Below, one piece after another: positions 16,191 to 64,000 of a DNA stretch of 64,000 bases (position 1 is its first letter; each line of letters starts with the position of its first letter). Both the position numbers and the translations under genes were made by a program. This stretch comes from Ignavibacteriaceae bacterium (GTDB taxonomy: Bacteria; Bacteroidota; Ignavibacteria; Ignavibacteriales; Ignavibacteriaceae), in contig WBUK01000005.1 in assembly GCA_008933765.1 (NCBI GenBank), positions 97,662 through 161,661 of the forward strand. Reading direction: 5' to 3'. The notes under the pieces are model-generated. The model made no database searches, was not told where the DNA came from, and was given only the letters and a program-made list of their open reading frames with translations.

Positions 16191-18120
16191 GCCGGAAGCC
16201 GCTGCTACTGTCCCTGTTGCCGGGCATGATGTAGTAACGAACCGCCACACGGCAGTTCCGCGCGGAGTAGCCCCAACTCCCGCCGCGAAGCACTCGAGAT
16301 GTGCCCGATGAGGGTCCCTTAGGATTCGTTTGCCTTGGGGATGTGTAATCTCCTTTCCAGTCCCAACACCACTCATATACATTGCCGCTCATATCATAGA
16401 TTCCTATTTCGTTCGGTTGCTTTAATCCAACTTCGTGCGTTGTTCTGCCTGAATTATCCCGGTACCAGGCTACTGCTCCTGTGTTGTTGCTGCCGCTGTA
16501 TTTGTAGTTCTTTGTTTGTTTCCCGCCTCTTGCCGCATATTCCCACTCTGCTTCTGTGGGTAACCTGTAACCATTTGAACTGAAATTACAGGTGATGTTA
16601 TCCCCGCTTCCGCTGTAGGCTCGCTGCAATCCCTCTCTGTCACTTAACCAGTTACAGAAGGATACCGCATCATTCCAACTGACATGGATGACCGGATGAT
16701 TATTCTCACTCTCAGGTCTTCTCTTACCATTTACATCACAACGCCAGTTGACGCCCGCTGTCTCTTTCAATTCACTGCCCGTCCAAATCAAGCTGCCTCC
16801 ATCCTTATCCGCATCTGTTTTGTAACCGGTTGCTTCTATAAATTCAGAAAACATTCCTACTGTTACTTCATATTTACCTATATAAAAATTATTAACAATG
16901 ACCTGATGAGTGGGCTTTTCATTATACCAACAATCATCACCTTGCTCCGAGGTGCAGCCCATTGTGAAGGTGCCGCCTTGAACAAATACCATCCCGGGAA
17001 GAACCGGTGCATCTTGTTTAAGCACTGTATCAAGCGCAACCCCGGTTGATTCCGGTTCTTCAACAGGTACTTCCGCCTTTTTACCGTCTTTTCCCAATTG
17101 CACTAATAAAATTATCAGGGTGATAACTGATAAAACTATAATACTGTTCCTGAAAAACTTTGAGGGTTTATTATTCTCAGATTTCGAAATATTTTCAGAA
17201 TTAATATCAATATTGGTTATTTTTGATTCTTCTTCGGTTTTAATATTGTCCCCGGCAAATTCATTTTTCGATGTTCTTTCTTCTGCCCCTCCGGATGCCT
17301 CAATTCTCTTCAGTTCTTCCAGCATTTCAAGGGCGTCTGAAAACCTTTTCTCTCTGTCAGGGTGGATTGCATTCATCACATAGGCGGTAAGCTCATCGGA
17401 TATGCCGGGATAAAATTTTGTGGGTAGTGGGATTCCGTTTTTAATAATTTCTGAGTAAACAGCGGCGGGGGTTGTCGTTTTTTCTCCGCTGAATGGGGTT
17501 TTGGCACAGAGCATCTCGTAAAAGGTCATCCCGAGTGAATATACATCGGTACGAATATCTACTGAACCCGGATCAATCAATGCTTCCGGACTCATATAAG
17601 TGGGTGTGCCCTTCATTACCGTGCTGGCGGCAGAGCCTATATCCAACACCTTCGCTATTCCGAAATCAGTGATTTTTACCGTGTCATCTTTGGTTACAAG
17701 GATGTTTAACGGCTTAAGGTCACGGTGGATTATCGGCGGGTTCTGTTGGTGGATGTATGCCATCCCCTCCAACATCTGCCTGAAGAGTTTAATTGCACGA
17801 TCACGACGGATGGGCCCCACTTCCCTTTGAATTATTTCAGAAAGCGTGCGCCCCTCTACGAACTCCATTACGATGTAGTAGTTACCCTCGGCTTCAAAAA
17901 TATCGGTAACATTCACGATGTTAGGATGATGAAGAGACCTGAGAAGTTTCGCCTCGTTCAGAAAAAGTTTAAGCACCGCAGGGTCGCTGCCGAACTGTTG
18001 CCACAACATCTTTACGGCATACACCTCATTAAAATGGATGTGACGCGCTTTATAGACTACACCCATCCCACCCTGACCAAGCTTCTCTGTCAGCTCATAA
18101 CTTTGTACCGTTTTTGCCAT
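16174..18120 (-). CDS. Membrane Ser/Thr protein kinase fused to SUMF1 domain with variable region VR1
   Basis: The 648-residue protein has a PknB-like kinase domain at residues about 8-275: P-loop GQGGMGVVY, catalytic lysine AVK at residue 37, HRDLKPLN and DFGIAK. One membrane helix follows at about 324-342 (IIVLSVITLIILLVQLG), then a SUMF1/FGE-sulfatase domain from about 377 to the end. The SUMF1 part has a C-type-lectin-like fold in known relatives. The Cys pair used by formylglycine-generating enzymes is not conserved in the GGSW...NCRVAVR region, so it is probably a binding rather than a catalytic module. The last 34 variable codons form VR1. Predicted topology is cytoplasmic kinase and periplasmic sensor. 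Confidence 0.85.
   Translation of the reverse strand: MAKTVQSYELTEKLGQGGMGVVYKARHIHFNEVYAVKMLWQQFGSDPAVLKLFLNEAKLLRSLHHPNIVNVTDIFEAEGNYYIVMEFVEGRTLSEIIQREVGPIRRDRAIKLFRQMLEGMAYIHQQNPPIIHRDLKPLNILVTKDDTVKITDFGIAKVLDIGSAASTVMKGTPTYMSPEALIDPGSVDIRTDVYSLGMTFYEMLCAKTPFSGEKTTTPAAVYSEIIKNGIPLPTKFYPGISDELTAYVMNAIHPDREKRFSDALEMLEELKRIEASGGAEERTSKNEFAGDNIKTEEESKITNIDINSENISKSENNKPSKFFRNSIIVLSVITLIILLVQLGKDGKKAEVPVEEPESTGVALDTVLKQDAPVLPGMVFVQGGTFTMGCTSEQGDDCWYNEKPTHQVIVNNFYIGKYEVTVGMFSEFIEATGYKTDADKDGGSLIWTGSELKETAGVNWRCDVNGKRRPESENNHPVIHVSWNDAVSFCNWLSDREGLQRAYSGSGDNITCNFSSNGYRLPTEAEWEYAARGGKQTKNYKYSGSNNTGAVAWYRDNSGRTTHEVGLKQPNEIGIYDMSGNVYEWCWDWKGDYTSPRQTNPKGPSSGTSRVLRGGSWGYSARNCRVAVRYYIMPGNRDSSSGFRLARTR
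16201..16302 (-). other. DGR-like variable region VR1
   Basis: This 102-bp segment aligns without gaps to four others in the window. Framework codons (GTG CTT CGC GGC GGG; TGC CGT GTG GCG; ATG CCC) are the same in all five. The variable codons are GGC TAC TCC, AAC, GTT, TAC TAC ATC, GGC AAC and GAC AGT AGC AGC. With one exception (AGT) all AAC-type positions end in C, as expected if an AAC template codon is mutated at its adenines. Confidence 0.85.
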
Positions 18121-18361
18121 GCTATATTATAAATGATGTTGGAAAAATAGAAATTGAAATTTTCTCAGGCTAAAATATTAAAACTTCTTCTAATATTTCT
18201 GTCATTAAAGATTAATATCCGGAAGTTTGTGCTTTTTACACAAACTTTTTTGTTTTTTTTGTTTTCAGCTTGGTACTTTTCCCTGAAGCGGGGTGCTTTG
18301 TTGGAGTCTGCGTTTTTCACAACTTTTCTCCCCCATGTATCCCCCCTCTTTACTCGCAATC

Positions 18362-18507
18362 TTCGCTCGGATGCTCGCCCGCTCCGCTTTGGCTGCGCAT
18401 CCTCGCTATGTGGCGTCCCCGAAGGGGACAGGTTTTCATCGCCTTCTGCGAAGGCGGCAAAAGGTAAAAATGCCAAAGGTAAAAAGGTAATTATCTTGTC
18501 CTGGCGA
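18362..18507. repeat. Triple-hairpin 3' cassette, copy B
   Basis: Near-identical to copy A, with the same three stems: GGATGC/GCATCC, GTCCCC/GGGGAC at 18415-18429 and CGCCTTC/GAAGGCG. It abuts the 3' end of the SUMF1 lipoprotein gene. The adjoining 18121-18361 stretch is AT-rich and gene-free; a 142-codon reading frame through the cassette is judged spurious. Confidence 0.85.
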
Positions 18508-19525
18508 GCCGGAAGCCGTTGCTGCTGCTCCTGCCGTCGGGCATGCCGCTGACACGAAGCGCCACACGGCAGTACCGCGCGTATATGATCCAACCCCCGC
18601 CGCGAAGCACTCGATATTCGCCCGATGAGGGTCCCTTAGGATTCGTTTGGCTTGGGGATGTGTAATCTCCATACCAATCCCAACACCACTCCCATACATT
18701 GCCGCTCATATCATAGATTCCTATTTCGTTCGGTTGCTTTAATCCCACTGCGTGCGTGTTATAGCCTGAATTACCATCGTACCAGGCTACTGCTCCTGTG
18801 TTGTCGCTACCGCTGTATTTGTAGTTCCTTGTTTGTTTCCCGCCTCTTGCTGCATATTCCCACTCTGCTTCTGTGGGTAACCTGTAACCGTTTGCGTTGA
18901 AATCACAGGTGATGTTTGCCCCGCTTCCGCTGTAGGCTCGCTGTAATCCCTCTTTATCACTTAATCTGTTGCAAAATTCTACCGCTTCGTACCAGCTTAC
19001 AGATTCCACAGGGCGTTTGGAACCCTTAAAATATGACGGATTACTGCCCATTACACTCTCCCATAATTCCTGAGTTACTTCATATTTACCGATATAAAAA
19101 TCACTCAAGGTTACCTGATGAGAAGGCTTTTCATCAGAATAACAGTCATTACCTTGCTCCGAGGTGCAGCCCATTGTGAAGGTGCCGCCCTGTACGAAAA
19201 CAAGATCAGTTGGGGGAGATAATGAAATGTTCTCCCCGGCTGTTAATAAGAATGTTTCTTCCCAGTAGATAAAATTACTTTTGGTAACTTTCAAACGATA
19301 TATTCCCCAGATCAATCCATCAATTCGTTTTGGACCTGACCACTCCAATATTTTTGTATCCCCAAAAAAGAGACTGCACATTTCATCCGAATTAACATTA
19401 ACAGTCAAAGAGCATTGATTGGGCAATTCAAAAGGCGCTTCGATCATCGAACACCCCGAAAGCAGGGAGGTTATTACAATTACAATGTAAAGTTTAACCA
19501 ATAACTTCTTGAACGGTGTCTCCAT
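18491..19525 (-). CDS. SUMF1-domain lipoprotein with variable region VR2
   Basis: The 344-residue product has a signal peptide and lipobox LLSGC (Cys at about residue 25). A short beta-rich segment resembling a PEGA-type domain follows (residues about 35-100: CSLTVNVNSDEMCSLFFGDTK), then a SUMF1 domain (FVQGGTFTMGCTSEQG through GFRLARTR). It has no kinase domain. Its 3' end is VR2 and is followed by the hairpin cassette. It would display a variable lectin-type domain on a lipid anchor. It lies about 370 bases upstream of the kinase gene on the same strand and may be coexpressed. Confidence 0.85.
   Translation of the reverse strand: METPFKKLLVKLYIVIVITSLLSGCSMIEAPFELPNQCSLTVNVNSDEMCSLFFGDTKILEWSGPKRIDGLIWGIYRLKVTKSNFIYWEETFLLTAGENISLSPPTDLVFVQGGTFTMGCTSEQGNDCYSDEKPSHQVTLSDFYIGKYEVTQELWESVMGSNPSYFKGSKRPVESVSWYEAVEFCNRLSDKEGLQRAYSGSGANITCDFNANGYRLPTEAEWEYAARGGKQTRNYKYSGSDNTGAVAWYDGNSGYNTHAVGLKQPNEIGIYDMSGNVWEWCWDWYGDYTSPSQTNPKGPSSGEYRVLRGGGWIIYARYCRVALRVSGMPDGRSSSNGFRLARTR
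18519..18620 (-). other. DGR-like variable region VR2
   Basis: A 102-bp segment aligned to VR1. Variable codons are GAA TAT, GGT, ATC ATA TAC, TAC, CTT, GTC AGC GGC, GAC GGC and AGC AGC AGC AAC. The only AAC-type column not ending in C is ATA. Framework synonymous positions match the other four copies. Confidence 0.85.
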
Positions 19526-19903: not shown

Positions 19904-21910
19904 ATGATTCGTCAGTTACTCAAGATATCTCTTTTTTTTCTTTTATTAACTTCTTTAATATTCCCGCAACTGAAAGAGTTAACGGTTAAACCCACTGAAA
20001 ACAGAGGTGGAATAATCATATTCAGAAATTATCCTGATAAAGCGGGAATAGTTTTCTACACACAGTTTGATAACCTTATTTTCCATTCAACATACGGCAT
20101 AACAAAAATAACCGGTGACCCTGAAGGTGGGAAATATATCCTCGTTCTTGAACCCACCCGCCAAACGATAGAAGTTCGTGCACCGGGCTATAAAACAGAA
20201 ATGATAAGAATAAACTCCTTAGAGCCAAGGGAGGTTCTTTACTATGAAGTTCTGCCTAAAAAAGAAGAAATGACGGGTGTAACTGAGGTTGGAATAACCG
20301 TTCAGGCAACACCACCGGATGCGACAATTCTTTTGGATGGTTCATCCATTTCGAACAACACGAACACGAAGGTATCCATCGGCACCCACAATTTAACGGT
20401 TGAGAAAAGCGGTTATGCCCCTTTCGTTCGTGAGATTGATGTAACCCCGGAGAATACCCTTTTCCAAATCACTCTTGAGAGAGTACAGCTTTCACCCGTA
20501 ACTATAAAATCAAACCCGGCAAACGCAACCGTTTATGTAAATAACGAGCATAAAGGAACAACAGAAGTGGGGTTTTTTCTCTTTCCCGGAGTTTATGACT
20601 TAAGAATAGAACTGCGGGATTATCTTCCGGTTGAAGAAAAGATAACCGTCCGTGCATCCGAAGATAACAGTGTTAACACTTTTAGTTATAATTTATTAAA
20701 AAACACCGGCGTTTTAGAACTCTCGGTAACGCCCTCAAATGCCACTATTACACTGAACGGAAACAATATAACGCCGGGTAATCACGAACTTAATCCCGGG
20801 AAATATCAACTTAGTGTTAAAGCTAACTTATACTCAAATCACTCGGAGGAGATTGAAATTAAAAGAGGGGAGAGGATAAAAAAGGATGTGATTCTTTCTA
20901 AAACTACGGGAATATTGAAGTTATCTGTAACACCGGCAGATGCTTCAATAAATATAAACAAAGAGAGAAAATACGGAAATGAGATTGAACTGATTGAAGG
21001 AATATATGAAGTTGAAATAAGTGCTGATACCTATTATCCGGAAACCTTTACGGTACAAATAGAAAAGGGTAAAACGGTAAACAAGTCGATTTCATTAAGA
21101 CAAAAAACGGGGTCTTTACAATTTACCGTTAAGCCGCCTTCAGCGGAAGTGGTACTAAATCAAAATGGGGTTGAACGATACAGATGGAACGGCTTAAAAA
21201 TTATTAATCAAATACCTGCAGGCATATATAATCTAACCGCCAAAGCCCCCGGTTACCAAACTTACACCGGAACAATTTCCGTTAAAGAAAATGAAACTAC
21301 CATAACAGAAATAGAACTGAAACAGATAACAGCTGTGGAAGTGAAAAATGATAAAACAGAAGAAAAGCAAAATTTCGTAACACCAAAACCGAACTGGGTA
21401 ATTGGCATTGACATATTAAAATCACCCACTACATCTTATTTGGGCGAAGAATATACTCTTAATCCGGGCATAAGCGCCGCAGTTAACATTTTCCTCGGAA
21501 ACCCAAGCCGTTTGGTACTTGAAGCAACCGTGAATTATACCGACCGAAAATATAAATCAAATATTTTCGAAATCACCAATTCTCAAACAACCTTCGGTGG
21601 AGGGATTGGTTACAAATATCTGATAAATCCATCTCTCTATTTCAGCATAATGGCAAATGCCTTCTCGGTTGCCGAATCCCGATCAACAAAAATGGTAAAC
21701 GGAGTTGAAGTGAAGAATGCAGGCAATGAAAGTGAAACATATTTTTCCTACGGACCGGGTTTAAATATTGGTTACCTTTTATATCTTTCCGACTCTTTTG
21801 GATTCGATATTTCAGCAAGATATAACATACTTTTTAACCCTCAGAATCCGTTTGTTAATAATCCGAACACTTTGCAGTCCTTTGGTGCTCGCATTGGGAT
21901 GTTTTTTTGA
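19904..21910 (+). CDS. PEGA-repeat outer-membrane beta-barrel protein
   Basis: The 668-residue protein has a signal peptide (residues about 1-21, IFPQ). About five PEGA-type repeats occupy residues 125-480, each with a pattern such as VQATPPDATILLDG...TVSIGTHNLTVEKSGY. A C-terminal part of about 170 residues, ending in alternating hydrophobic strands and terminal Phe (FGARIGMFF), looks like an outer-membrane barrel. PEGA domains are surface or periplasmic beta-sandwiches thought to bind envelope components. It is divergent from the SUMF1 lipoprotein gene, which also has a PEGA-like segment, so a functional link is possible but not shown. Confidence 0.7.
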   Translation: MIRQLLKISLFFLLLTSLIFPQLKELTVKPTENRGGIIIFRNYPDKAGIVFYTQFDNLIFHSTYGITKITGDPEGGKYILVLEPTRQTIEVRAPGYKTEMIRINSLEPREVLYYEVLPKKEEMTGVTEVGITVQATPPDATILLDGSSISNNTNTKVSIGTHNLTVEKSGYAPFVREIDVTPENTLFQITLERVQLSPVTIKSNPANATVYVNNEHKGTTEVGFFLFPGVYDLRIELRDYLPVEEKITVRASEDNSVNTFSYNLLKNTGVLELSVTPSNATITLNGNNITPGNHELNPGKYQLSVKANLYSNHSEEIEIKRGERIKKDVILSKTTGILKLSVTPADASININKERKYGNEIELIEGIYEVEISADTYYPETFTVQIEKGKTVNKSISLRQKTGSLQFTVKPPSAEVVLNQNGVERYRWNGLKIINQIPAGIYNLTAKAPGYQTYTGTISVKENETTITEIELKQITAVEVKNDKTEEKQNFVTPKPNWVIGIDILKSPTTSYLGEEYTLNPGISAAVNIFLGNPSRLVLEATVNYTDRKYKSNIFEITNSQTTFGGGIGYKYLINPSLYFSIMANAFSVAESRSTKMVNGVEVKNAGNESETYFSYGPGLNIGYLLYLSDSFGFDISARYNILFNPQNPFVNNPNTLQSFGARIGMFF

Positions 21911-50310: not shown

Positions 50311-50455
50311 GCTCGGTTGCTTGCCCGCTTCGCTTTGGCTGTGCAACCTCGCTATGTGGTGTCCCCTCTGGGGACGGGTTTTCATCGCCTTCTCCGAAGG
50401 CGGCAAAAGGTAATAATGCCAAAGGTAAAAATCTAATCATCTTGTCCTGGCGAGC
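50311..50455. repeat. Triple-hairpin 3' cassette, copy C
   Basis: Third copy beside a variable-region gene. Stem 1 is GGTTGC at 50315-50320 with GCAACC at 50343-50348, a two-sided change from GGATGC/GCATCC in copies A and B that keeps pairing. Stem 2 keeps GTCCCC/GGGGAC with loop TCT instead of GAA. Stem 3 has loop TCC rather than TGC. Confidence 0.85.
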
Positions 50456-52275
50456 CGGGCGCCGCGGTCGCTGCCCCTGAGGTCGGGCATGCTGTCGTCA
50501 CGAAGCGCCACACGGCAGTTCCGCGCGAAGCTGTACCAACTCCCGCCGCGAAGCACACGACGGGTGCCCGATGAGGGTCCCTTAGGATTCGTTTGGCCTG
50601 ACGGTGCGTAGTAATTGCTCCAATACCAATCCCAACACCACTCCCCTACATTGCCGCTCATATCATAGATTCCTATTTCGTTCGGTTGCTTTAATCCAAC
50701 TGCGTGAGTTTTATTGCCTGAATTATCCCCGTACCAGGCTACTTCTCCTGTGTTGTCGCTCCCGCTGTATTTATAATTCCTTGTCCGGTTCCCACCCCTT
50801 GCCGCATATTCCCATTCCGCCTCAGTTGGTAACCTGTAGCCGTTGGAATTTCCGGAACATTCAACTACAATTTCCGTTGAACCCATTAACGATTTCCAAA
50901 ATCCGGTTGCCTTAGTTTCCCTAATAATATAGTATGGGTCAAGCCCTTCTAATTCACTTAATCTGTTGCAAAACTCAACCGCATCATACCACCTTATATT
51001 CTCAACAGGGAGTTTGGAACCTTTGAACCATGACGGATTTCTACCCATTACACTCTCCCACTGTGCCTGTGTAACCGGGTATTTACCAATTAAAAAACTA
51101 TCCAATGTAACTTCGTGAACAGGTTGCTCATCTGAGTCACCTTCATCACTACCCATCCTAAATGTGCCGCCTTCAACTGAAACAAGTTCCATTCCGGTTT
51201 TGGTTTTTATCTCGTTCCCCGATTTTGCATCAGTTTGGAATTGTGAGTTTGCCATTTCCCGCTTAAGTGCATCTCTTCCGGCGTTTGATATGTTACCGCC
51301 ACCCGATCCGGCGTTTGCAGGTATTCCAAACTTTGGCAGACCAAAATCAGAAGAGAAAGTACCGGCGAACCCTGAAGAATCACCCATTTCCTTAAAACCT
51401 GCCACTCCATGACCCGCACCAACATCACTTCCGTAAACGGTGGCACCGTCTTTTTCTAATTCTTCCAGTGCGTAGTACATCTCCATCGCACTTGAAAACC
51501 TTTTCTCTCTGTCCGGGTGAATTGCCTTCATCACATAGGCGGTAAGCTCATCTGAAATGCCGGGATAGAACTCTGTCGGTGGGGGAAGCTCACCGCTTAT
51601 TATTCGGGCGTAAACTGCGGTGGGGGTGATGGTATCATCACCGGTGAAGGGAGTTTTGGCGCAGAGCATCTCGTAAAAGGTCATTCCGAGTGAATATACA
51701 TCGGTACGAATATCTACGGATGAAGGATTAATTATTGATTCGGGACTCATATAAACCGGAGTACCTTTTACAACGGTTGATGCCCCCTGACCCGCCTCCA
51801 AAACTTTGGCTATTCCGAAATCTGCAATTTTAACCCGGTCATCCGATGTAATAAGGATGTTCGGCGGCTTCAAATCACGGTGAATAATCGGAGGATTATG
51901 TGAGTGGATGTAAGCCATTCCTTCCAACATCTGCTTAAAGAGATTAACCGCCCGGGAACGACGGATAGGCCCCACTTCTTTTTTGATTATCTCAGAAAGC
52001 GTTCGCCCCTCAACGAACTCCATAACGATGTAGTAGTTACCCTCATAATCAAAAATATCGGAAACGCCAACGATGTTCGGATGGCTGAGCGTTCTTAGCA
52101 GCTTCGCTTCGTTCAGAAAAAGCTTAAGCACTGTCGGGTTACTTCCGAACTGCTGCCACAACATCTTTACGGCATAAATTTCATCGAAATGCCGGTGGCG
52201 CGCTTTATACACAACACCCATTCCACCCTGCCCAAGTTGTTCAATCAGTTCGTAAACATGTACTGTTTTTGCCAT
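50437..52275 (-). CDS. Soluble Ser/Thr kinase fused to SUMF1 domain with variable region VR3
   Basis: The 612-residue protein has a PknB-type kinase at residues about 8-272 (GQGGMGVVY, AVK, HRDLKPPN, DFGIAK). A Gly/Ala-rich linker (about 280-355) without any membrane helix follows, then a SUMF1 domain from about 363 (SVEGGTFRMGSDEGDSDE). It is thus predicted cytoplasmic, unlike the membrane kinases in the window. The 3' end is VR3, followed by hairpin cassette C. The kinase half is repeated exactly at 53716-55548, whereas the C-terminal end differs. The TATAATAT-like sequence just upstream of the ATG is shared with that copy. Confidence 0.87.
   Translation of the reverse strand: MAKTVHVYELIEQLGQGGMGVVYKARHRHFDEIYAVKMLWQQFGSNPTVLKLFLNEAKLLRTLSHPNIVGVSDIFDYEGNYYIVMEFVEGRTLSEIIKKEVGPIRRSRAVNLFKQMLEGMAYIHSHNPPIIHRDLKPPNILITSDDRVKIADFGIAKVLEAGQGASTVVKGTPVYMSPESIINPSSVDIRTDVYSLGMTFYEMLCAKTPFTGDDTITPTAVYARIISGELPPPTEFYPGISDELTAYVMKAIHPDREKRFSSAMEMYYALEELEKDGATVYGSDVGAGHGVAGFKEMGDSSGFAGTFSSDFGLPKFGIPANAGSGGGNISNAGRDALKREMANSQFQTDAKSGNEIKTKTGMELVSVEGGTFRMGSDEGDSDEQPVHEVTLDSFLIGKYPVTQAQWESVMGRNPSWFKGSKLPVENIRWYDAVEFCNRLSELEGLDPYYIIRETKATGFWKSLMGSTEIVVECSGNSNGYRLPTEAEWEYAARGGNRTRNYKYSGSDNTGEVAWYGDNSGNKTHAVGLKQPNEIGIYDMSGNVGEWCWDWYWSNYYAPSGQTNPKGPSSGTRRVLRGGSWYSFARNCRVALRDDSMPDLRGSDRGARLARTR
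50464..50565 (-). other. DGR-like variable region VR3
   Basis: 102 bp with variable codons ACC CGT, TAC AGC TTC, AAC, CTT, GAC GAC AGC, GAC CTC and GGC AGC GAC CGC, all ending in C where an AAC template is expected. One framework deviation, TTC to GCC (near the end), is not explained by adenine change. Confidence 0.85.
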
Positions 52276-53491: not shown

Positions 53492-53620
53492 GTTACACAA
53501 CTACTATTATGAAAGAAAAGAGAAATAAATTAACCACCAAAATATGAAATTTTTCGTGTGATACAACCCTTTTGCACTCAGGTTATTAAAAAATCTTTAA
53601 CTTTTTAACACCCGGCATCA

Positions 53621-53711: not shown

Positions 53712-53715
53712 CCGG

Positions 53716-55548
53716 TTACTTATTCCGTGCGAGCCGGAAGCCGAGGCTGCTGTTCCTGAAGCCGGGCATGCTGCTGCCACGATTCGCCACACGGCAGTTC
53801 CGCGCGACGCTGTACCAACACCCGCCGCGAAGCACTCGATATTCGCCCGATGAGGGTCCCTTAGGATTCGTTTGGCTTGGGGATGTGTAATCTCCTTTCC
53901 AATCCCAACACCACTCATATACATTGCCGCTCATATCATAGATTCCTATTTCGTTCGGTTGCTTTAATCCAACTTCGTGTGTTTTAATGCCTGAATTACC
54001 ATCGTACCAGGCTACTGCTCCTGTGTTGTCGCTCCCGCTGTATTTATAATTCCTTGTCCGGTTCCCACCCCTTGCCGCATATTCCCATTCCGCCTCAGTT
54101 GGTAACCTGTAGCCGTTGGAATTTCCGGAACATTCAACTACAATTTCCGTTGAACCCATTAACGATTTCCAAAATCCGGTTGCCTTAGTTTCCCTAATAA
54201 TATAGTATGGGTCAAGCCCTTCTAATTCACTTAATCTGTTGCAAAACTCAACCGCATCATACCACCTTATATTCTCAACAGGGAGTTTGGAACCTTTGAA
54301 CCATGACGGATTTCTACCCATTACACTCTCCCACTGTGCCTGTGTAACCGGGTATTTACCAATTAAAAAACTATCCAATGTAACTTCGTGAACAGGTTGC
54401 TCATCTGAGTCACCTTCATCACTACCCATCCTAAATGTGCCGCCTTCAACTGAAACAAGTTCCATTCCGGTTTTGGTTTTTATCTCGTTCCCCGATTTTG
54501 CATCAGTTTGGAATTGTGAGTTTGCCATTTCCCGCTTAAGTGCATCTCTTCCGGCGTTTGATATGTTACCGCCACCCGATCCGGCGTTTGCAGGTATTCC
54601 AAACTTTGGCAGACCAAAATCAGAAGAGAAAGTACCGGCGAACCCTGAAGAATCACCCATTTCCTTAAAACCTGCCACTCCATGACCCGCACCAACATCA
54701 CTTCCGTAAACGGTGGCACCGTCTTTTTCTAATTCTTCCAGTGCGTAGTACATCTCCATCGCACTTGAAAACCTTTTCTCTCTGTCCGGGTGAATTGCCT
54801 TCATCACATAGGCGGTAAGCTCATCTGAAATGCCGGGATAGAACTCTGTCGGTGGGGGAAGCTCACCGCTTATTATTCGGGCGTAAACTGCGGTGGGGGT
54901 GATGGTATCATCACCGGTGAAGGGAGTTTTGGCGCAGAGCATCTCGTAAAAGGTCATTCCGAGTGAATATACATCGGTACGAATATCTACGGATGAAGGA
55001 TTAATTATTGATTCGGGACTCATATAAACCGGAGTACCTTTTACAACGGTTGATGCCCCCTGACCCGCCTCCAAAACTTTGGCTATTCCGAAATCTGCAA
55101 TTTTAACCCGGTCATCCGATGTAATAAGGATGTTCGGCGGCTTCAAATCACGGTGAATAATCGGAGGATTATGTGAGTGGATGTAAGCCATTCCTTCCAA
55201 CATCTGCTTAAAGAGATTAACCGCCCGGGAACGACGGATAGGCCCCACTTCTTTTTTGATTATCTCAGAAAGCGTTCGCCCCTCAACGAACTCCATAACG
55301 ATGTAGTAGTTACCCTCATAATCAAAAATATCGGAAACGCCAACGATGTTCGGATGGCTGAGCGTTCTTAGCAGCTTCGCTTCGTTCAGAAAAAGCTTAA
55401 GCACTGTCGGGTTACTTCCGAACTGCTGCCACAACATCTTTACGGCATAAATTTCATCGAAATGCCGGTGGCGCGCTTTATACACAACACCCATTCCACC
55501 CTGCCCAAGTTGTTCAATCAGTTCGTAAACATGTACTGTTTTTGCCAT
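53716..55548 (-). CDS. Soluble Ser/Thr kinase fused to SUMF1 domain with variable region VR4
   Basis: The 610-residue protein is identical to the 50437 product from the N-terminus through the shared block and then differs only in the last third of the SUMF1 domain (from about DNTG) and the variable region. Kinase motifs are GQGGMGVVY, AVK, HRDLKPPN and DFGIAK; no membrane helix. The 3' end reads FRLARNK with codons distinct from the LARTR class, and no hairpin cassette follows. This makes a natural comparison pair: same kinase and linker, different predicted ligand face. Confidence 0.87.
   Translation of the reverse strand: MAKTVHVYELIEQLGQGGMGVVYKARHRHFDEIYAVKMLWQQFGSNPTVLKLFLNEAKLLRTLSHPNIVGVSDIFDYEGNYYIVMEFVEGRTLSEIIKKEVGPIRRSRAVNLFKQMLEGMAYIHSHNPPIIHRDLKPPNILITSDDRVKIADFGIAKVLEAGQGASTVVKGTPVYMSPESIINPSSVDIRTDVYSLGMTFYEMLCAKTPFTGDDTITPTAVYARIISGELPPPTEFYPGISDELTAYVMKAIHPDREKRFSSAMEMYYALEELEKDGATVYGSDVGAGHGVAGFKEMGDSSGFAGTFSSDFGLPKFGIPANAGSGGGNISNAGRDALKREMANSQFQTDAKSGNEIKTKTGMELVSVEGGTFRMGSDEGDSDEQPVHEVTLDSFLIGKYPVTQAQWESVMGRNPSWFKGSKLPVENIRWYDAVEFCNRLSELEGLDPYYIIRETKATGFWKSLMGSTEIVVECSGNSNGYRLPTEAEWEYAARGGNRTRNYKYSGSDNTGAVAWYDGNSGIKTHEVGLKQPNEIGIYDMSGNVYEWCWDWKGDYTSPSQTNPKGPSSGEYRVLRGGCWYSVARNCRVANRGSSMPGFRNSSLGFRLARNK
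53743..53844 (-). other. DGR-like variable region VR4
   Basis: 102 bp with variable codons GAA TAT, TGT, TAC AGC GTC, AAC, AAT, GGC AGC AGC, GGC TTC and AAC AGC AGC CTC. All AAC-type positions end in C. The bases beyond the VR differ from VR1-3. Confidence 0.85.
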
Positions 55549-56644: not shown

Positions 56645-56700
56645 AACTTGTTCGCTGCTTCCATATTTTGATTATTCAAATTCTCTCTGAAAAAAAATCA

Positions 56701-57702
56701 CTACATCCTTGATCTTGCCACCCGAAACCCGGTATTATTATACCCATAATTGCCGGAAATAATGCCTCGTGCCCCCACACGGCCATAACTCGGGTTTTCA
56801 GACCAACTGCCACCTCGCAATGTTCGGTATTGCCCCCATTGCGGTCCCGTAGGGTTTACTTGACTTACGGCAGAATAATCCCCCTTCCAATCCCAACACC
56901 AATCCCAGACATTACCGCTCATATCAAAAAGCCCAAGCTCGTTCGGCAGCTTTTTGCCCACTTCGTGTGTTCTGCCCCATGAGTTACCATCATACCATGC
57001 AACCTCCCCTAAGATATTGCTGCCGCAATATTTATAGCTTTTCGATTTTCTGCCACCCCGTGCGGCGTACTCCCACTCCGCCTCAGTTGGAAGGCGATAC
57101 CCGTTAGCATTGAAATCGCAGGAAACAGAGTTTCCGGCACCGCTGTAAGCCCTTTCCAACCCTTCTTTATCGCTTAACCAGTTGCAGTACGCCACTGCGT
57201 CTGCCCAGCTTACATAGATAACCGGGTGATTCCTCTCGGAGTTGCTTCTAATCTTTGCGTTGACATCAAAGCGCCAGTTCACGCCGGAGAAAACCCTCCA
57301 CGAATCTCCGTACCGGAGATAGCAAATGCCTGATTTTTCGGCATCTGTTTTGTAGCCGGTCTCCTCAATAAACCTGGAAAACTGCCCAAAAGTAACCTCA
57401 AATTTATTTATATAGAAACTATTTAATGTAACCTGATGAGCGGGTTTTTCATAATTGTAGCAATCGCCCCCTTGTTCAGAAGTGCAGCCCATCATAAATG
57501 TTCCGCCTTCAACTAACACCATTTCCGGTGAATTACGATTTGCCGTATCTGCGGTAGAAGAAGTGTTAAGCTCGCCGGCGGCGTCTGATTTTTCGAATAT
57601 TACGAACGCCACTACCAGAGTGATCAGTAAAGTAGCCACTACGCCCAGAAGCAAAAAAAACAGCGAAGAATTGCGTAACTTTTGTTTGTTATTTGTAACC
57701 AT
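56701..57702 (-). CDS. Membrane-anchored SUMF1-domain protein, non-variable
   Basis: The 333-residue protein has an N-terminal membrane helix (about residues 13-35: LFFLLLGVVATLLITLVVAFVIF) and a SUMF1 domain starting at about 62 (LVEGGTFMMGCTSEQG). It includes the insert seen in the 16174 kinase (IEETGYKTDAEKSG), which the shorter SUMF1 proteins lack. The C-terminus GGSWSENPSYGRVGARGIISGNYGYNNTGFRVARSRM is divergent in DNA from VR1-5. No kinase is attached. Confidence 0.8.
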   Translation of the reverse strand: MVTNNKQKLRNSSLFFLLLGVVATLLITLVVAFVIFEKSDAAGELNTSSTADTANRNSPEMVLVEGGTFMMGCTSEQGGDCYNYEKPAHQVTLNSFYINKFEVTFGQFSRFIEETGYKTDAEKSGICYLRYGDSWRVFSGVNWRFDVNAKIRSNSERNHPVIYVSWADAVAYCNWLSDKEGLERAYSGAGNSVSCDFNANGYRLPTEAEWEYAARGGRKSKSYKYCGSNILGEVAWYDGNSWGRTHEVGKKLPNELGLFDMSGNVWDWCWDWKGDYSAVSQVNPTGPQWGQYRTLRGGSWSENPSYGRVGARGIISGNYGYNNTGFRVARSRM

Positions 57703-58103
57703 ATTTCCGGCCCAACTATTTTTAATTTAAATTGGTAACATTGTTTAACGCCGGGGCAGCACACACTGCCCTGTTTGAACGAAAAGCCTTTGTAAATCCG
57801 GTATTTTAGCCATAAACCATAAAAACCTGACTGATGAAAGAAAACGAAATGTGAGATAACGAAAATATTCAAACTTTCCGTAATATTTCAATATTTACGG
57901 GCAATTATTGAATTTACCGGCGAAAAAATTTGTATGCCCGTCTTCGGTTGATTCGCACAGACCACCACGCAGACATCTGAATGACCTCTTCTGAAAAATC
58001 AAACACTTTTTCTGCTTCACCTGATTCGAGCACACCACCTCTATCGGAACTCCCCGAACCAACACCCTCCCCGGGAACAACCATCACTTCGCCAAAATCA
58101 CTA
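57703..58103. other. Gene-free 401-base intergenic region
   Basis: Between two same-strand genes. A 61-codon frame here has no support. I see no repeat, terminator or template-repeat-like sequence; the upstream promoter of the SUMF1 membrane gene must lie here. Confidence 0.45.
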
Positions 58104-59912
58104 CTATTTTGATCTCACAAGCCGAAAGCCGATATTGGTGCCTTTAGAAGTATAATGATTGCAACCACGCGCAGAAACCCGGCAATCACTCCCCTGTCGG
58201 GACCAATCACCCCCACGAAGCGCCCGATAATTCAGAATCCACGCTAATTGTGAATTATTATTTGTGTCACTTGTTTTTGAACCTAAATCCATACAATTAT
58301 CCCAGCACCACTCCCAAATGTTACCACTCATATCGTAAAGCCCAAGTTCGTTCGGCAGCATTCTTCCCACCGGGTGGGAAACCTTGTTAGAATTCTTCTT
58401 ATACCAGGCAATTTTCTCAATATCGCTGCTGCCACTGTACTTATAATTTCCCGAACGCAAACCACCCCGTGCGGCGTATTCCCACTCCGCCTCGGTGGGC
58501 AACCTGTAACCGTTTGCCTGAAAATTGCACGAAATATTCATACTCCCACCGCTGTAAGCCCTTTCCAACCCTTCTTTATCGCTTAACCAGTTGCAAAATT
58601 CAACTGCATAGAGCCAGCTGACTCCTTCGACCGGCAGATTTTTACCCTCATATTTGGAAGGGTTAAAATCCATAACACTTTCCCAAAGCTCCTGCGTAAC
58701 TTCGTATTTGGAGATATAAAAGTCGTTAACGGAAACTGTTTTCGCCGGGTTAGTGCTTTCGTTACATTCGGGTTCCTGATCGGGCGTACAACCCATCAAA
58801 TAAGTACCCCCTTTCACAAAGACCATCTCGTGCAGAATCTCACCGGAAGTTAAACTTTTGATTAAAAAAAATGCAACCAGCAACAAACCCGCGAGAAGAG
58901 AAAACTTAACAATATTTGCAGCTCTGTGTAGCCTGCTTCCTGCCCCTTTTTTCCGGGGGCGGATTAGTTGGTTCAAAAAATTTTTGAATTTAAGCGATAG
59001 AATACGCCGGGTTTTAATTTTGGTTTTATTCATAACAACGGCGAGAGAAATCTTCCCCTTGATTGATTCTACCACTGTTGCACCCATTTCTTCCAATTTA
59101 TTTAGCTCTTCCAGCATCTCCTGTGCACCGGCGAACCGGCTCTCCCGATCGGGGTGGAGTGCTTTCATCACAAAATCGGAAAGCTGATCAGATATGCCGG
59201 GATAATAAGCCGTTGGCGGAGGGATTTTATTCTTCATCACCCGTTCATATATTAAAATCGGGGAGGTATCAATCGCCGGATCAAAGGGAAGGCGACCGCA
59301 AAGCATTACATAAAACGACATCCCCAAAGAATAGATATCCGCACGAATATCAATTTTGCCCGGTTCCCGTATCTGTTCCGGGCTCATATAGTTTGGTGTA
59401 CCCTTCATCACGGTGCTTGTCTGTGAACCGACCTCCAACGCTTTTGCCAGCCCAAAATCGGTTATTTTAACTACATCATCTTTAGTTACGAGAATGTTCA
59501 GCGGTTTGAGATCGCGGTGGAGTACGGGCGGATTTTGTGATTGGATATATGCCATCCCTTCCAACATCTGCTTGAAGAGATTGATCGCCCGGGTGTGCTG
59601 AATGGGCCCCACTTCCTTCTGAATAATTTCCGCCAGGGTACGCCCCTCGACGAACTCCATCACGATATAGTGGTTGTTTTCAAACTCAAAAATATCGGAA
59701 ACCTTAACGATATTTGGGTGACTGAGCTTTCTGAGAAGTTTTGCCTCGTTCAAAAACAGCCGGATCATCGCCTGATCGCTGCCGAATTGTTGCCACAACA
59801 TCTTCATGGCGTAGATTTCATTAAAATGGATGTGCCGTACCTTATAAACAACACCCATTCCCCCTTGCCCTAATTGCTCAATTAACTGATAGCTTTTTAC
59901 AGTCTTTGACAT
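58104..59912 (-). CDS. Membrane Ser/Thr kinase fused to SUMF1 domain, non-variable
   Basis: The 602-residue protein has a kinase domain (about 8-270: GQGGMGVVYKVRH, AMK, HRDLKPLN, DFGLAK), a membrane helix at about 333-352 (VKFSLLAGLLLVAFFLIK) and a SUMF1 domain from about 365 (FVKGGTYLMGCTPDQE). The end, RALRGGDWSRQGSDCRVSARGCNHYTSKGTNIGFRLVRSK, differs in length and DNA from VR1-5. It represents the static version of the same receptor-kinase architecture. Confidence 0.82.
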   Translation of the reverse strand: MSKTVKSYQLIEQLGQGGMGVVYKVRHIHFNEIYAMKMLWQQFGSDQAMIRLFLNEAKLLRKLSHPNIVKVSDIFEFENNHYIVMEFVEGRTLAEIIQKEVGPIQHTRAINLFKQMLEGMAYIQSQNPPVLHRDLKPLNILVTKDDVVKITDFGLAKALEVGSQTSTVMKGTPNYMSPEQIREPGKIDIRADIYSLGMSFYVMLCGRLPFDPAIDTSPILIYERVMKNKIPPPTAYYPGISDQLSDFVMKALHPDRESRFAGAQEMLEELNKLEEMGATVVESIKGKISLAVVMNKTKIKTRRILSLKFKNFLNQLIRPRKKGAGSRLHRAANIVKFSLLAGLLLVAFFLIKSLTSGEILHEMVFVKGGTYLMGCTPDQEPECNESTNPAKTVSVNDFYISKYEVTQELWESVMDFNPSKYEGKNLPVEGVSWLYAVEFCNWLSDKEGLERAYSGGSMNISCNFQANGYRLPTEAEWEYAARGGLRSGNYKYSGSSDIEKIAWYKKNSNKVSHPVGRMLPNELGLYDMSGNIWEWCWDNCMDLGSKTSDTNNNSQLAWILNYRALRGGDWSRQGSDCRVSARGCNHYTSKGTNIGFRLVRSK

Positions 59913-59950
59913 TTTTGCCCCGATCGATTGGATTTATTTTAATTTAATAT

Positions 59951-61876
59951 TTACTTTGATTTAACAAGTCTTAAGCCAAAGACACTACTTCTGGTATTCG
60001 GCTCTGCTTTGAATTGTTTCGATAATGTTAAATCTTCCAACGGGGAAGCCCAACAGCCTCCGCGAAGCACTCGTTCAGTGCCCGATTCGGATCCGTTTGG
60101 GTTTTCCTCAAAGGGAAAATAGTAATTTTCATACAAATCCCAACACCACTCCAGCACATTACCGATAAAATCATAAAGCCCTATCCCGTTGGGTAGTTTT
60201 TTCCCACCCGGATGGGTATTAAAATCTGAATTATCCTGATACCAGCCAAATTCTGAACGGAGTATCCCGTCGAAATATTGTACATCTCCGTACTTTTCTC
60301 CCGAGTAAGAATCATAATCGTCTGAATCATCATCATACTGCCCGTCTTCATTGCGTTTCTCATTAATTAAGTTTGAGTTACCTGTTGCGGCATATTCCCA
60401 TTCAGATTCTGTCGGCAGGCGGTAGCCGTTTGCGTTAAAGTCGCATTTAACCATTGTATCCCGGATTTCATAAGCCCGTTGTAAACCATAAATATCACTC
60501 AGCCGATTGCAAAATTCAACAGCTTCGAACCACGAAATATTTTCCACCGGCAGGTTATCACCTCTATTCATTGAGCGGTTGCTTCCCATTACTTCTTCCC
60601 ACAATTTCTGCGTAACTTCATATTTCCCTATGTAAAAACCGGGTATAATTAGGTAACTATGGTTTGAAGATCCGGGCTCATCTCTATCTGCTCCGGAACT
60701 TGACGAAGCAAGCTTTCTTCCTTTAACAAATACCATTTCAAGCCCTTTGCCGGTCGGTATAGAATCTTTTAATAAGAATTGAAACAGAAGTATTAAGCAT
60801 ACGAGGGAAACGCTGACTGCGGCAAAAATGATGTTGAATTTTTTGCTTCTGAATGGTTTAATTTTCCTTAGCAGGTTTCTACTAAACCTGCTTTTGCTTA
60901 GCCGGATAAGATTTTTCAGCCGGTTTTCCCTGATGTGTTGGGAAGTGTCTCCGCTTGCGGATTTGTGCCGGTGTTCATTATCGTGCCGGCCTTCATTATC
61001 AGGGAAAGTGCTAAGCCGTGGCGGTTTGTAATCCATTATAGTTTCCCCTCTGTCTTCCAGCAGTTCCAACTTATCCAACATCTGCTGTGCGCTTGAAAAC
61101 CGGCGCTTCCGGTTCGGGTGGATTGCCTTCATCACATAGGCTGCCAAGCTCTCGGTTATGCCCGAGTAATATTCAGTGGGTGGGGGGATTTGTTTGTTCA
61201 CCACTTTCTCGTAGATCAACATAGGTGTGTTATCCGTCGCCGGATCAAACGGCAAACGCCCGCAGAGCATAACATAGAGCGACATCCCTAAGGAATATAC
61301 ATCGGTTCTGACATCAATATTGCCCGGTTCCCGTATCTGTTCCGGACTCATGTAGTGTGGCGTCCCTTTCATAACCGTGCTTTGCGCTGCGCTCAAATCC
61401 AAAACTTTTGCCAGCCCAAAATCTGTTATTTTAACAACATCATCTTTTGTTACAATGATGTTCAGCGGTTTGAGGTCGCGGTGAATAATCGGAGGATTTT
61501 GCGAGTGGATATACGCCATCCCCTCTAACATCTGTTTGAAGAGATTGATCGCTCTGACCTGTTGGATGGGGCCCACTTCCTTTTGAATGATTTCCGCCAG
61601 GGTGCGCCCCTCGACGAATTCCATAACAATGAAGTTTTCGCTGTTGTAACTTACCATGTCAGTTACATTTACAATGTTCGGATGATGAAGCTTCCGGAGG
61701 AGCTTCGCCTCGTTGACGAAAAGCTGAAGTACGGTGGGGTCGCTGCCGAATTGTTGCCACAACATCTTCATGGCGTAGATTTCGTTAAAATGGATGTGCC
61801 GGGCTTTATACACCACTCCCATCCCACCTTGACCAAGTTGCTCCATCAGTTCATAATTTTGTACAATTTTTGCCAT
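59951..61876 (-). CDS. Membrane Ser/Thr kinase fused to divergent SUMF1 domain
   Basis: The 641-residue protein has a kinase domain (GQGGMGVVY, AMK, HRDLKPLN, DFGLAK) and a basic linker with an N-terminal-side membrane helix (about 350-370: FNIIFAAVSVSLVCLILLFQFLL). The SUMF1 domain is divergent, begins around 375 and lacks the first Gly-rich motif. It has an acidic insertion (about 540-560: RNEDGQYDDDSDDYDSY). The C-terminus WASPLEDLTLSKQFKAEPNTR departs furthest from the others, suggesting drift of this copy. Confidence 0.78.
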   Translation of the reverse strand: MAKIVQNYELMEQLGQGGMGVVYKARHIHFNEIYAMKMLWQQFGSDPTVLQLFVNEAKLLRKLHHPNIVNVTDMVSYNSENFIVMEFVEGRTLAEIIQKEVGPIQQVRAINLFKQMLEGMAYIHSQNPPIIHRDLKPLNIIVTKDDVVKITDFGLAKVLDLSAAQSTVMKGTPHYMSPEQIREPGNIDVRTDVYSLGMSLYVMLCGRLPFDPATDNTPMLIYEKVVNKQIPPPTEYYSGITESLAAYVMKAIHPNRKRRFSSAQQMLDKLELLEDRGETIMDYKPPRLSTFPDNEGRHDNEHRHKSASGDTSQHIRENRLKNLIRLSKSRFSRNLLRKIKPFRSKKFNIIFAAVSVSLVCLILLFQFLLKDSIPTGKGLEMVFVKGRKLASSSSGADRDEPGSSNHSYLIIPGFYIGKYEVTQKLWEEVMGSNRSMNRGDNLPVENISWFEAVEFCNRLSDIYGLQRAYEIRDTMVKCDFNANGYRLPTESEWEYAATGNSNLINEKRNEDGQYDDDSDDYDSYSGEKYGDVQYFDGILRSEFGWYQDNSDFNTHPGGKKLPNGIGLYDFIGNVLEWCWDLYENYYFPFEENPNGSESGTERVLRGGCWASPLEDLTLSKQFKAEPNTRSSVFGLRLVKSK

Positions 61877-61910
61877 GTTATCCCACTTACGAAATTGTTC
61901 TGTAATTATG

Positions 61911-62987
61911 CTATTTCGGCACTTCTTTTAAGATACTGTTAATTATCAGCAACAGAAAAATCAGGGAAACGGCAATCATCATCACAATTACTATTATCTC
62001 CGTTCTCTGCCTGTTTTTTTTCTTTCTGCCGAGAAGAATCTGCTCCCTCTCCGCCGGCGATTTAACAAATGCCCCCGTGCCGCCCCCATGCGTTGGGTGT
62101 GAGCCATCCGCCGGTGCCAAAGCCGACCAAAGCGGAGCGGAGCTGACCATCGTTTCGCCCATTTCTTCAATAATTTTCAACTCCTGCAACATCTCATACG
62201 CGCTTGGGAACCGCCACTCTCTTTCTTTATTTATTGCTTTCATTACGAAATCGGAGAGTCTTTCGGAAATGCCGGGATAGAACGCAGTCGGCGGGGGTAT
62301 ATTCCCCTGCATTATCTGAGTGTAAACCGCTATGGGAGTTGTCGCTCTTGTATCAGTGAATGGTGTTTTGGCGCAAAGCATCTCGTAGAAAGTCATCCCG
62401 AGCGAATAAACATCGCTTCGGGTATCAACCGATGAGGGGTTCATAAGTGCTTCGGGGCTCATATTTGTCGGGGTGCCTTTCATTACGGTGCTTGCGGAGG
62501 CTTCTGCTTCCAGCACTTTTGCGATGCCAAAATCGGTTATTTTAACTACATCATCTTTAGTTACGAGAATGTTCAGCGGTTTGAGGTCGCGGTGAATAAT
62601 CGGAGGGTTTTGCGAGTGGATATACGCCATCCCCTCTAACATCTGTTTGAGGAGGTGAACCGCCCGCTCCCGCCGGATGGGCCCCACTTCTTTCCTGATA
62701 ATTTCCGAAAGTGTCCGCCCCTCAACGAACTCCATAACGATATAGTTTTCATTTTCGTAACTTAATACCTCATTTACAGTTACGATGTTCGGATGGTGCA
62801 GTTTTCTGAGAAGTTTTGCCTCGTTAAGGAAGAGATTAAGTACGGCAGGATTGTTTCTGAATTGTTGCCACAACATTTTAACCGCGAAAATTTCGCCGAA
62901 GTGGATGTGCCGGGCTTTATACACCACCCCCATCCCCCCTTGCCCAATCTGTTCTATCAACTCATAATTCTGTACTGTTTTTGCCAT
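61911..62987 (-). CDS. Ser/Thr kinase with C-terminal membrane anchor and no SUMF1 domain
   Basis: The ATG at 62987 gives 358 residues: a kinase domain (about 8-270: GQGGMGVVY, AVKML, HRDLKPLN, DFGIAK, TNMSPEAL) and a linker ending in a hydrophobic tail (about 330-352: EIIVIVMMIAVSLIFLLLIINS). It lies 34 bases upstream of the kinase-SUMF1 gene at 61876 and may be cotranscribed. It could be a coupling partner for SUMF1 proteins without kinases, or a remnant of a fusion that lost its C-terminus. Confidence 0.75.
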   Translation of the reverse strand: MAKTVQNYELIEQIGQGGMGVVYKARHIHFGEIFAVKMLWQQFRNNPAVLNLFLNEAKLLRKLHHPNIVTVNEVLSYENENYIVMEFVEGRTLSEIIRKEVGPIRRERAVHLLKQMLEGMAYIHSQNPPIIHRDLKPLNILVTKDDVVKITDFGIAKVLEAEASASTVMKGTPTNMSPEALMNPSSVDTRSDVYSLGMTFYEMLCAKTPFTDTRATTPIAVYTQIMQGNIPPPTAFYPGISERLSDFVMKAINKEREWRFPSAYEMLQELKIIEEMGETMVSSAPLWSALAPADGSHPTHGGGTGAFVKSPAEREQILLGRKKKNRQRTEIIVIVMMIAVSLIFLLLIINSILKEVPK

Positions 62988-63104
62988 CTTTAACAAAAAA
63001 TGATATTAAAAGGAAAGTGAAATAAATTCATAATTAAAATATGAAATTTTTCCCACTATTCAACCTTTTTTTCCCGCTAGAGGTGGAATGTACCATTAAC
63101 TTCT

Positions 63105-64000
63105 TTACTTATTTCGTGCAATGCGGAAGCCGTAGTAGCTGTGCCTGTAGTCGGGCATGCTGTAGTCACGATTCGCCACACGGCAGTACCGCGCGTAGTT
63201 GCGACAACTCCCGCCGCGAAGCACACGACCTATGCCCGATGAGGGTCCCTTAGGATTCGTTTGCCTTGGGGATGTGTAATTTCCTTTACAATCCCAACAC
63301 CACTCCCATACATTGCCGCTCATATCATAGATTCCTATTTCGTTCGGTTGCTTTAATCCAACTGCGTAGGTTTTACCGCCTGAATTACCCCCGTACCAGG
63401 CTACTTTATCAATGTTGTTGCTGCCACTGTATATATAGTTTTTTGATCGATTTCCGCCTCTTGCGGCATATTCCCACTCCGCTTCAGTGGGTAACCTGTA
63501 ACCGTTGGAATTTCCGGAACATTCAATTACAATTTCCGTTGAATCAATTAATGATTTCCAAAATCCGGTTGCTTCTCTTTCCCTAATAATATAGTATGGG
63601 TCAAGCCCTTCTAATTCACTTAATCTGTTGCAAAACTCAACCGCATCATACCACCTTATATTCTCAACAGGGAGTTTGGAACCCTTAAAATACGACGGAT
63701 TTTTACCCATTACACTCTCCCACTGTTCTTGTGTAACCGGATACTTACCAATTAAAAAGCTATCCAATGTAACTTCGTGAATTGGCTTCTCATCAGAGTC
63801 ACCTTCATCACTACCCATCCTAAATGTGCCGCCTTCAACTGAAACAAGTTCCATTCCGGTTTTGGTTTTAATGGAGGGTGGTAGTTCTGCCTCTTTTTTA
63901 GAACCGCTCTCAAACCGTAAATTAGCACCCGGATAATGTGCCCTCTCTTTTCCTTGGCTTGCTCCGCCGGAAGAGGTTGCGCCAATGCCCATTCCCTCTC
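63105..64000 (-). CDS. SUMF1-domain protein with variable region VR5, 5' end outside the window
   Basis: The frame is open to the window edge; the first Met seen (63992) is internal in style and followed by a Gly/Ser-rich linker (GIGATSSGGASQGK) as in the 50437 kinase. The visible SUMF1 domain starts ELVSVEGGTFRMGSDEGDSDE and ends GFRIARNK. By similarity to the 50437/53716 proteins it is probably the C-terminal third of another soluble kinase-SUMF1 fusion. It carries VR5 near its stop and has no hairpin cassette. Confidence 0.78.
   Translation of the reverse strand, partial: EGMGIGATSSGGASQGKERAHYPGANLRFESGSKKEAELPPSIKTKTGMELVSVEGGTFRMGSDEGDSDEKPIHEVTLDSFLIGKYPVTQEQWESVMGKNPSYFKGSKLPVENIRWYDAVEFCNRLSELEGLDPYYIIREREATGFWKSLIDSTEIVIECSGNSNGYRLPTEAEWEYAARGGNRSKNYIYSGSNNIDKVAWYGGNSGGKTYAVGLKQPNEIGIYDMSGNVWEWCWDCKGNYTSPRQTNPKGPSSGIGRVLRGGSCRNYARYCRVANRDYSMPDYRHSYYGFRIARNK
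63132..63233 (-). other. DGR-like variable region VR5
   Basis: 102 bp with variable codons ATA GGT, CGC AAC TAC, TAC, AAT, GAC TAC AGC, GAC TAC and CAC AGC TAC TAC, all C-ending in AAC columns. One framework exception is TGT in place of TGG, a G-to-T change that adenine mutagenesis does not explain. Confidence 0.85.

What the first reader, a model, noticed from the sequence alone, without database searches (positions are those of the whole stretch)
16201..63233. Five SUMF1 genes carry DGR-type variable regions with adenine-template signature
Five 102-bp segments (16201-16302, 18519-18620, 50464-50565, 53743-53844, 63132-63233) align without gaps. Framework codons are identical even at synonymous positions. 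Variation is confined almost wholly to 13 columns of NNC codons, one NNT column (GTT/CTT/AAT) and two upstream columns of AAA/AAT type. Of 65 codons in the NNC columns, 63 end in C; exceptions are ATA in VR2 and AGT in VR1. The pattern is what adenine-specific mutagenic homing from a template rich in AAC codons produces. Exceptions outside it are a TGT in VR5 and a GCC in VR3. No reverse transcriptase or template repeat is seen in the window, so the system would act in trans. SUMF1/C-type-lectin domains are established DGR target folds.
Basis: partly seen in the sequence, partly recalled or inferred. Interest (0 to 1): 0.95.

Follow-up and report, generated by a model that had tools for sequence, protein, structure and literature searches.

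The report
Orphan hypermutated sensor-gene repertoire
Eight genes in this bacterium's draft genome, five of them in this window, for protein kinases or for proteins predicted to be exported, end in a short stretch that varies in the pattern left by adenine-targeting retroelements, so they were likely hypermutated by such an element, whose enzyme and template are missing from the draft; similar sets of target genes are already known in other bacteria.

Summary
In detail: five 102-bp minus-strand segments at the 3' ends of SUMF1/FGE-domain genes share one framework and vary at NNC codons (VR2 is one base off). The draft genome holds three more copies. Over 8 copies, 95 of 96 codons in 12 variable columns end in C; codon usage predicts about 35, and 11 other SUMF1 paralogs give 44 of 132. 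An independent test supports a DGR origin: a family relative (G014) has RT, Avd-like protein and template, four of its eight compared SUMF1 loci differ from that template only at adenines (58 of 58), and the template's adenines predict our variable columns. The closest solved protein is the Treponema denticola variable protein. No DGR-type reverse transcriptase, Avd-like gene or template is in the 90%-complete draft, but contigs break near these genes. The variable region is identical in three near-identical protein pairs, so recent turnover is not seen. Variation also extends about 200 bp upstream in a different pattern that fits gene conversion. Best reading: remote targets of one DGR, acting from an assembly gap (0.55) or recently lost (0.33). 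Remote kinase targets (cyanobacteria) and orphan targets (Treponema) are known: a new member of a known kind.

The parts
16174..18120 (-). Gene W1: Ser/Thr kinase, hydrophobic segment at residue 322, C-terminal SUMF1 domain
   Evidence: PF00069 and PF03781; hydropathy
16201..16302 (-). VR1
   Evidence: Alignment columns 328-361
16123..16139 (-). 7-bp inverted repeat 34 nt after the stop of W1 (loop GCA)
   Evidence: present in 6 of 8 cassette copies
18491..19525 (-). Gene W2: probable lipoprotein with SUMF1 domain
   Evidence: PF03781; N-terminal LLSGC read by eye; hydropathy
18518..18619 (-). VR2 (coordinates corrected by one base)
18440..18456 (-). 7-bp inverted repeat 34 nt after the stop of W2
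50437..52275 (-). Gene W3: kinase with SUMF1 domain, twin of W4
   Evidence: identical to W4 from 193 bp before the start codon to CDS position 1531
50464..50565 (-). VR3
50386..50402 (-). 7-bp inverted repeat 34 nt after the stop of W3 (loop GGA)
53716..55548 (-). Gene W4: kinase with SUMF1 domain
53743..53844 (-). VR4
53845..54015 (-). Shared upstream tract of W4 (alignment columns 267-327), read as gene conversion
63105..63998 (-). Gene W5: SUMF1 part of a gene cut by the contig end; equals the last 297 residues of P0002, a 600-aa kinase-SUMF1 protein
63132..63233 (-). VR5
63234..63404 (-). Shared upstream tract of W5 (alignment columns 267-327)

Best explanation
The five segments, with three more elsewhere in the draft genome, are likely the variable regions of at least eight remote target genes of one diversity-generating retroelement, whose reverse transcriptase and template would act in trans and are not in the draft assembly. 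Inferred mechanism: a template RNA rich in AAC codons is reverse transcribed with errors at adenines. The cDNA replaces the 3' end of SUMF1 (C-type-lectin-type) domains, which rewrites about a dozen presumably ligand-facing positions and leaves the framework and the third codon base intact. The targets are Ser/Thr kinases, a probable lipoprotein and proteins with signal-peptide-like starts, so the element would diversify what a set of sensors binds. Recombination between the paralogs additionally moves longer 3' tracts from gene to gene. Shown: the pattern, the eight copies, the absence of RT, Avd-like gene and template from the draft, and the match to the template of a relative's DGR. Inferred: that a DGR made the pattern (about 0.9), that its machinery sits in an assembly gap, and the sensing role.
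For: 95 of 96 C-ending codons in 12 variable columns against 44 of 132 in 11 other paralogs; 23 of 39 variable nucleotide columns of the VR have 3-4 states. G014 of the same family has RT, bAvd-like gene and template beside a SUMF1 target; four of eight compared G014 SUMF1 loci differ from its template at adenines only, 58 of 58, and its adenines predict our variable columns, 25 of 34 against 5 of 62. Base spectrum at 26 sites that I chose as putative adenines: A 101, G 50, T 41, C 16 of 208; G014: A 82, T 35, G 17, C 6 of 140, and 0 of 292 mismatches elsewhere. The best solved match of W2 is the T. denticola variable protein 2y3c, E 2.9e-55, against 1.9e-23 for FGE. Draft 90% complete; W5 runs into the end of C28 and the other copies lie at base 844 of C29 and bases 2064 and 5156 of C6; three of the four clean G014 targets are likewise on contigs that end about 120 bp from the match.
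Against: No template, no DGR-type RT and no bAvd in the draft. The variable region is identical in three near-identical protein pairs, two of which differ elsewhere. Exceptions to the adenine rule inside the VR: ATA, AGT, TGT, GCC, TGG (column 329). W4 and W5 lack the downstream inverted repeat. Nine template-adenine columns of G014 do not vary here. The upstream tract also contains A in 27 of its 41 variable columns, not far below the VR's 31 of 39, so presence of A alone does not discriminate.
Confidence: 0.55

Rival explanations
1. A DGR made these regions but has since been lost. The eight genes are orphan targets with frozen variable regions, as in T. denticola isolates that lack RT and template.
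For: RT, bAvd-like gene and template are absent from the draft; three near-identical protein pairs have identical VRs; the precedent is described in PMC4891356 (passages).
Against: The signature is almost intact, 95 of 96 C-ending codons, whereas 18 comparable SUMF1 C-termini of the three same-genus genomes, where no DGR-size RT was found, give 106 of 216 (2 to 11 of 12 each, RT searches). Contigs break near the cassette genes.
Confidence: 0.33
2. No DGR was involved: gene conversion homogenised the framework and diversifying selection changed the binding residues.
For: Tract exchange is visible: W3 and W4 are identical over 1,724 bp and then diverge abruptly; tract ends are ragged in W3, W4 and W5; P0007 differs from W1 only at residues 545-563, upstream of the VR.
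Against: Selection on amino acids does not lock the third base to C nor exclude K, E, Q, M and W (0 of 96 here, 14 of 132 in the other paralogs). The upstream tract has 35 of 41 variable columns with two states and 18 of 41 on the third base, against 16 of 39 and 6 of 39 in the VR. The G014 template predicts the columns.
Confidence: 0.07

Closest known systems
DGR of family relative G014 (L054: RT 7911-9008, bAvd-like 8956-9312, template about 7800-7907, target gene 9469-10341)
   Same: SUMF1 targets, template codons aligned ungapped with our variable columns, several targets on other contigs
   Different: RT and template are present there; framework DNA differs
Treponema denticola variable protein DGR (2y3c)
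   Same: Closest solved protein; isolates without RT and template keep target genes (PMC4891356, passages)
   Different: 62% of the targets identified there have lipoprotein signals; here kinases prevail
Cyanobacterial remote variable proteins
   Same: C-terminal CLec domain on Ser/Thr kinases dispersed in the genome (PMC7517822, passages)
   Different: RT known there; other phylum
Thiohalocapsa PB-PSB1 DGRs
   Same: Incomplete loci and remote targets, some best explained by action in trans (PMC10907252, abstract and section 8)
   Different: There population reads show diversification; here no reads could be examined

Membership tests
Diversity-generating retroelement (complete element) | DGR-type reverse transcriptase | tested here: not met
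   The draft's two RVT_1 matches are an RT-Cas1 fusion and a retron type VI RT; the G014 RT finds only the former. The draft is 90% complete.
Diversity-generating retroelement (complete element) | Template repeat matching the VR at non-adenine bases | tested here: not met
   8 framework matches in the draft, all VRs; BLAST finds the same 8 plus one 49-bp piece
Diversity-generating retroelement (complete element) | Accessory Avd-like gene (common, not universal; recalled) | tested here: not met
   PF22296: no match in the draft; above its cut-off in 4 of 8 genomes searched, the four with DGR-type RTs
Diversity-generating retroelement (complete element) | Ongoing diversification in the population | tested here: inconclusive
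   No reads on hand; three near-identical protein pairs have identical VRs
DGR target gene (variable region) | Variation at template adenines only | tested here: inconclusive
   Own template unknown. Columns predicted by the G014 template vary in 25 of 34 cases against 5 of 62 others
DGR target gene (variable region) | Variable region at the 3' end of a C-type-lectin/FGE-type domain | tested here: met
   PF03781 in 5 of 5 window genes; best solved match 2y3c (W2 only)
DGR target gene (variable region) | Inverted repeat downstream of the VR (7-10 bp stem, GRNA loop, 4-34 bp away in phage DGRs, PMC3240598 passages) | tested here: inconclusive
   7-bp stem with a 3-nt loop 34 nt after the stop in 6 of 8 copies; none in W4 and W5

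The most novel reading that the evidence does not exclude
The retroelement is gone, and the genome keeps a repertoire of at least eight DGR-made binding regions that is now reshuffled by gene conversion between sensor kinases, lipoproteins and exported proteins: retroelement-made diversity maintained by recombination.
Probability: 0.2. Interest if true: 0.62.

Novelty: new member of a known kind. Interest (0 to 1): 0.45.

Why it matters
It would give a bacterial set of sensor kinases whose binding regions are, or were, rewritten by reverse transcription, with natural twins (W3 and W4) that share 1,724 identical base pairs and differ only towards the 3' end, including the binding region. Such twins allow a direct test of what the variable region does to kinase signalling. 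It also shows how draft assemblies can hide DGRs: contigs break near the targets, so RT-based surveys could miss such systems, while the NNC signature finds them from targets alone.

Tried and rejected
Template or RT in the draft: searched and not found (gapless VR scan of the two RT loci). The two RTs that exist were rejected as DGR RTs because the best PADLOC models are Cas1_IIIb and RT_VI. Own TR/VR scan: it found template/target pairs on all five relative stretches with DGR-type RTs and none in the 58 loci. A longer template covering the upstream tract was considered and rejected: that tract has indels, mostly two-state columns and frequent third-base changes, although A is present in 27 of its 41 variable columns. 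Exact framework patterns in IMG/VR and GTDB contigs, and BLAST of phage records: nothing; these tools say that records very near the window's genome may be left out. Framework with up to 3 mismatches: 0 of 96 relatives; with a shorter pattern 1 of 394 other genomes of the phylum, a kinase-SUMF1 gene of G003 with 3 mismatches and 8 of 12 C-ending codons. Protein searches: one search gave three useful pairs; (best 120 rows each) showed no entry without a source, so no own-species RT. Structure prediction was not run.

Full report
Observation. The five segments are on the minus strand, in one codon register, and end 8 codons before the stop of five SUMF1/FGE-sulfatase genes. VR2 is one base off in the finding. 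Genes W1, W3 and W4 are Hanks-type kinases with a C-terminal SUMF1 domain; HRDLKP and DFG are visible in the translations (motif names recalled). W2 looks like a lipoprotein (by eye). W5 is cut by the contig end and equals the C-terminal 297 residues of P0002, a 600-aa kinase-SUMF1 protein.

Genome context. The window is the right end of contig C28 of a 3.36-Mb draft (37 contigs, completeness 90.07). The framework occurs eight times in the draft: five here, at bases 2064 and 5156 of C6 and at base 844 of C29. The three extra genes start with hydrophobic segments that look like signal peptides. The draft has 25 SUMF1 matches; 8 carry the cassette. Of the others my motif recovered 12 C-termini, of which 11 were used and 1 was dropped for a gap; 5 matches were not recovered.

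Signature. In 12 variable NNC columns, 95 of 96 codons end in C; the codon usage of 27 chosen window ORFs predicts 35.3 (P 1e-43, nominal only, since the copies are related). The 11 other paralogs give 44 of 132. In the VR, 23 of 39 variable nucleotide columns have 3 or 4 states; in the tract just upstream, 6 of 41. Columns with one amino acid vary in codon in 2 of 17 cases inside the VR and in 14 of 20 further upstream. Between the twins W3 and W4, 14 of 14 substitutions in alignment columns 336-361 fall on codon positions 1 or 2 (counted).

Independent template. The RT of phage BPP-1 (L019), searched in 96 relatives, gave strong matches (E 6e-35 or better) with open frames of 341-369 aa in four: G006 (two), G014, G017, G020. 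On the five stretches fetched from them a template/target pair is present, with 14 of 16, 16 of 16, 10 of 11, 9 of 11 and 15 of 15 mismatches at template adenines. In G014 the RT, a bAvd-like protein (PF22296) and a SUMF1 target lie beside the template. Of eight G014 SUMF1 loci compared, out of 15 matches in that genome, four differ from the template at adenines only (16, 15, 12 and 15 mismatches); the other four are not clean (17 of 26, 18 of 26, 20 of 42 and 16 of 59 mismatches at A). This template aligns ungapped with the window's VRs and its adenines predict the variable columns: 25 of 34 against 5 of 62. The nine that do not vary are where our framework has GCG, CGG, ATG, AGG and AGC codons. 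Base spectra at the sites are alike, A most frequent and C rarest in both (the 26 sites here were chosen after seeing the data).

What is missing. PF00078 finds two RTs in the draft: an RT-Cas1 fusion and a type VI retron RT. The G014 RT finds only the former. PF22296 finds nothing, while it scores above its cut-off in the four genomes with DGR-type RTs. The template is absent. W5 runs into the end of C28, the C29 and C6 copies lie near contig starts, and C10 begins 28 bases before another SUMF1 match. In G014 three of the four clean targets are on contigs that end about 120 bp from the match. I take a gap as somewhat more likely than loss.

Activity. Three proteins that the search lists without a source, as it does the window's own, are near-identical to W1, W4 and W5. 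W1/P0007 differ at 6 residues, all between 545 and 563, upstream of the VR. W4/P0001 differ at 5 residues, none in the VR. W5/P0002 do not differ over 297 residues. The VR is identical in all three, so change elsewhere is visible and VR turnover is not. In the three same-genus genomes, where no RT of DGR size was found (G001 is only 82% complete), 18 comparable SUMF1 C-termini have 106 of 216 C-ending codons, 2 to 11 of 12 each. The one with 11 of 12, in G001, may be another, separate variable region.

Upstream tract. From alignment column 267 the eight genes share one framework although the genes upstream belong to two families. The tract ends are ragged by eye: W5 from column 267 to about 364, W4 from about 257 to 366, W3 through the 3' flank. 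Variation there is mostly two-state and includes third bases and indels; A occurs in 27 of 41 variable columns, so an adenine share alone does not separate it from the VR (31 of 39). Where P0007 differs from W1 it has the residues of the first C6 copy (by eye). I read this as gene conversion between paralogs (inference).

3' flank. Six of eight copies carry a 7-bp inverted repeat 34 nt after the stop; W4 and W5 have none. Two of four G014 targets have one at +31, and the other two a shorter one at that place by eye. Phage DGRs need such a repeat (PMC3240598, passages), but loop and distance differ here, so this is only suggestive.

Relation to the known. The T. denticola variable protein (2y3c; TvpA, name recalled) is the closest solved protein. 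Kinase-CLec remote targets are known in cyanobacteria (PMC7517822, passages), targets in isolates without RT and template in T. denticola (PMC4891356, passages), and trans action and incomplete loci in Thiohalocapsa (PMC10907252, abstract and section 8). DGRs are reported as more common in the FCB group, which includes Chlorobi (PMC8144416, passages). The finding is a new member of this kind. It is not filed as a complete DGR, because RT and template were tested and not met in the draft; it works like a set of DGR targets.

Noticed in passing
window 42752-48916: Genes of a Mu-like prophage between the two groups of SUMF1 genes: GemA/Gam, Mu transposase C-terminal domain, CII-like regulator, S24 peptidase. 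Its ends were not mapped.
   Followed up: no
window 50437-63998: Row of nine minus-strand genes: eight with SUMF1 domains, of which W3, W4 and two others also have a kinase domain in the window, and one kinase without SUMF1 (61911-62996). Five of the SUMF1 genes lack the cassette and have eroded or different 3' ends.
   Followed up: partly
window 19904-21910 (+): Protein with several PEGA domains next to W2.
   Followed up: no
L001 1291-3620 (draft contig C36): RT-Cas1 fusion, best PADLOC model Cas1_IIIb.
   Followed up: no
L002 1324-2548 (draft contig C37): Type VI-like retron RT with a small helix-turn-helix-like ORF before it (by eye).
   Followed up: no
L091 (same-genus genome G001): A SUMF1 C-terminus with 11 of 12 C-ending codons at the variable columns and another framework, perhaps a separate DGR target.
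   Followed up: no
3' flanks of W1, W2, W3 and of the C6 and C29 copies: A conserved stretch of about 130 nt after the stop with two short inverted repeats; a query including it matched only the cassette copies and one 49-bp piece in the draft.
   Followed up: partly
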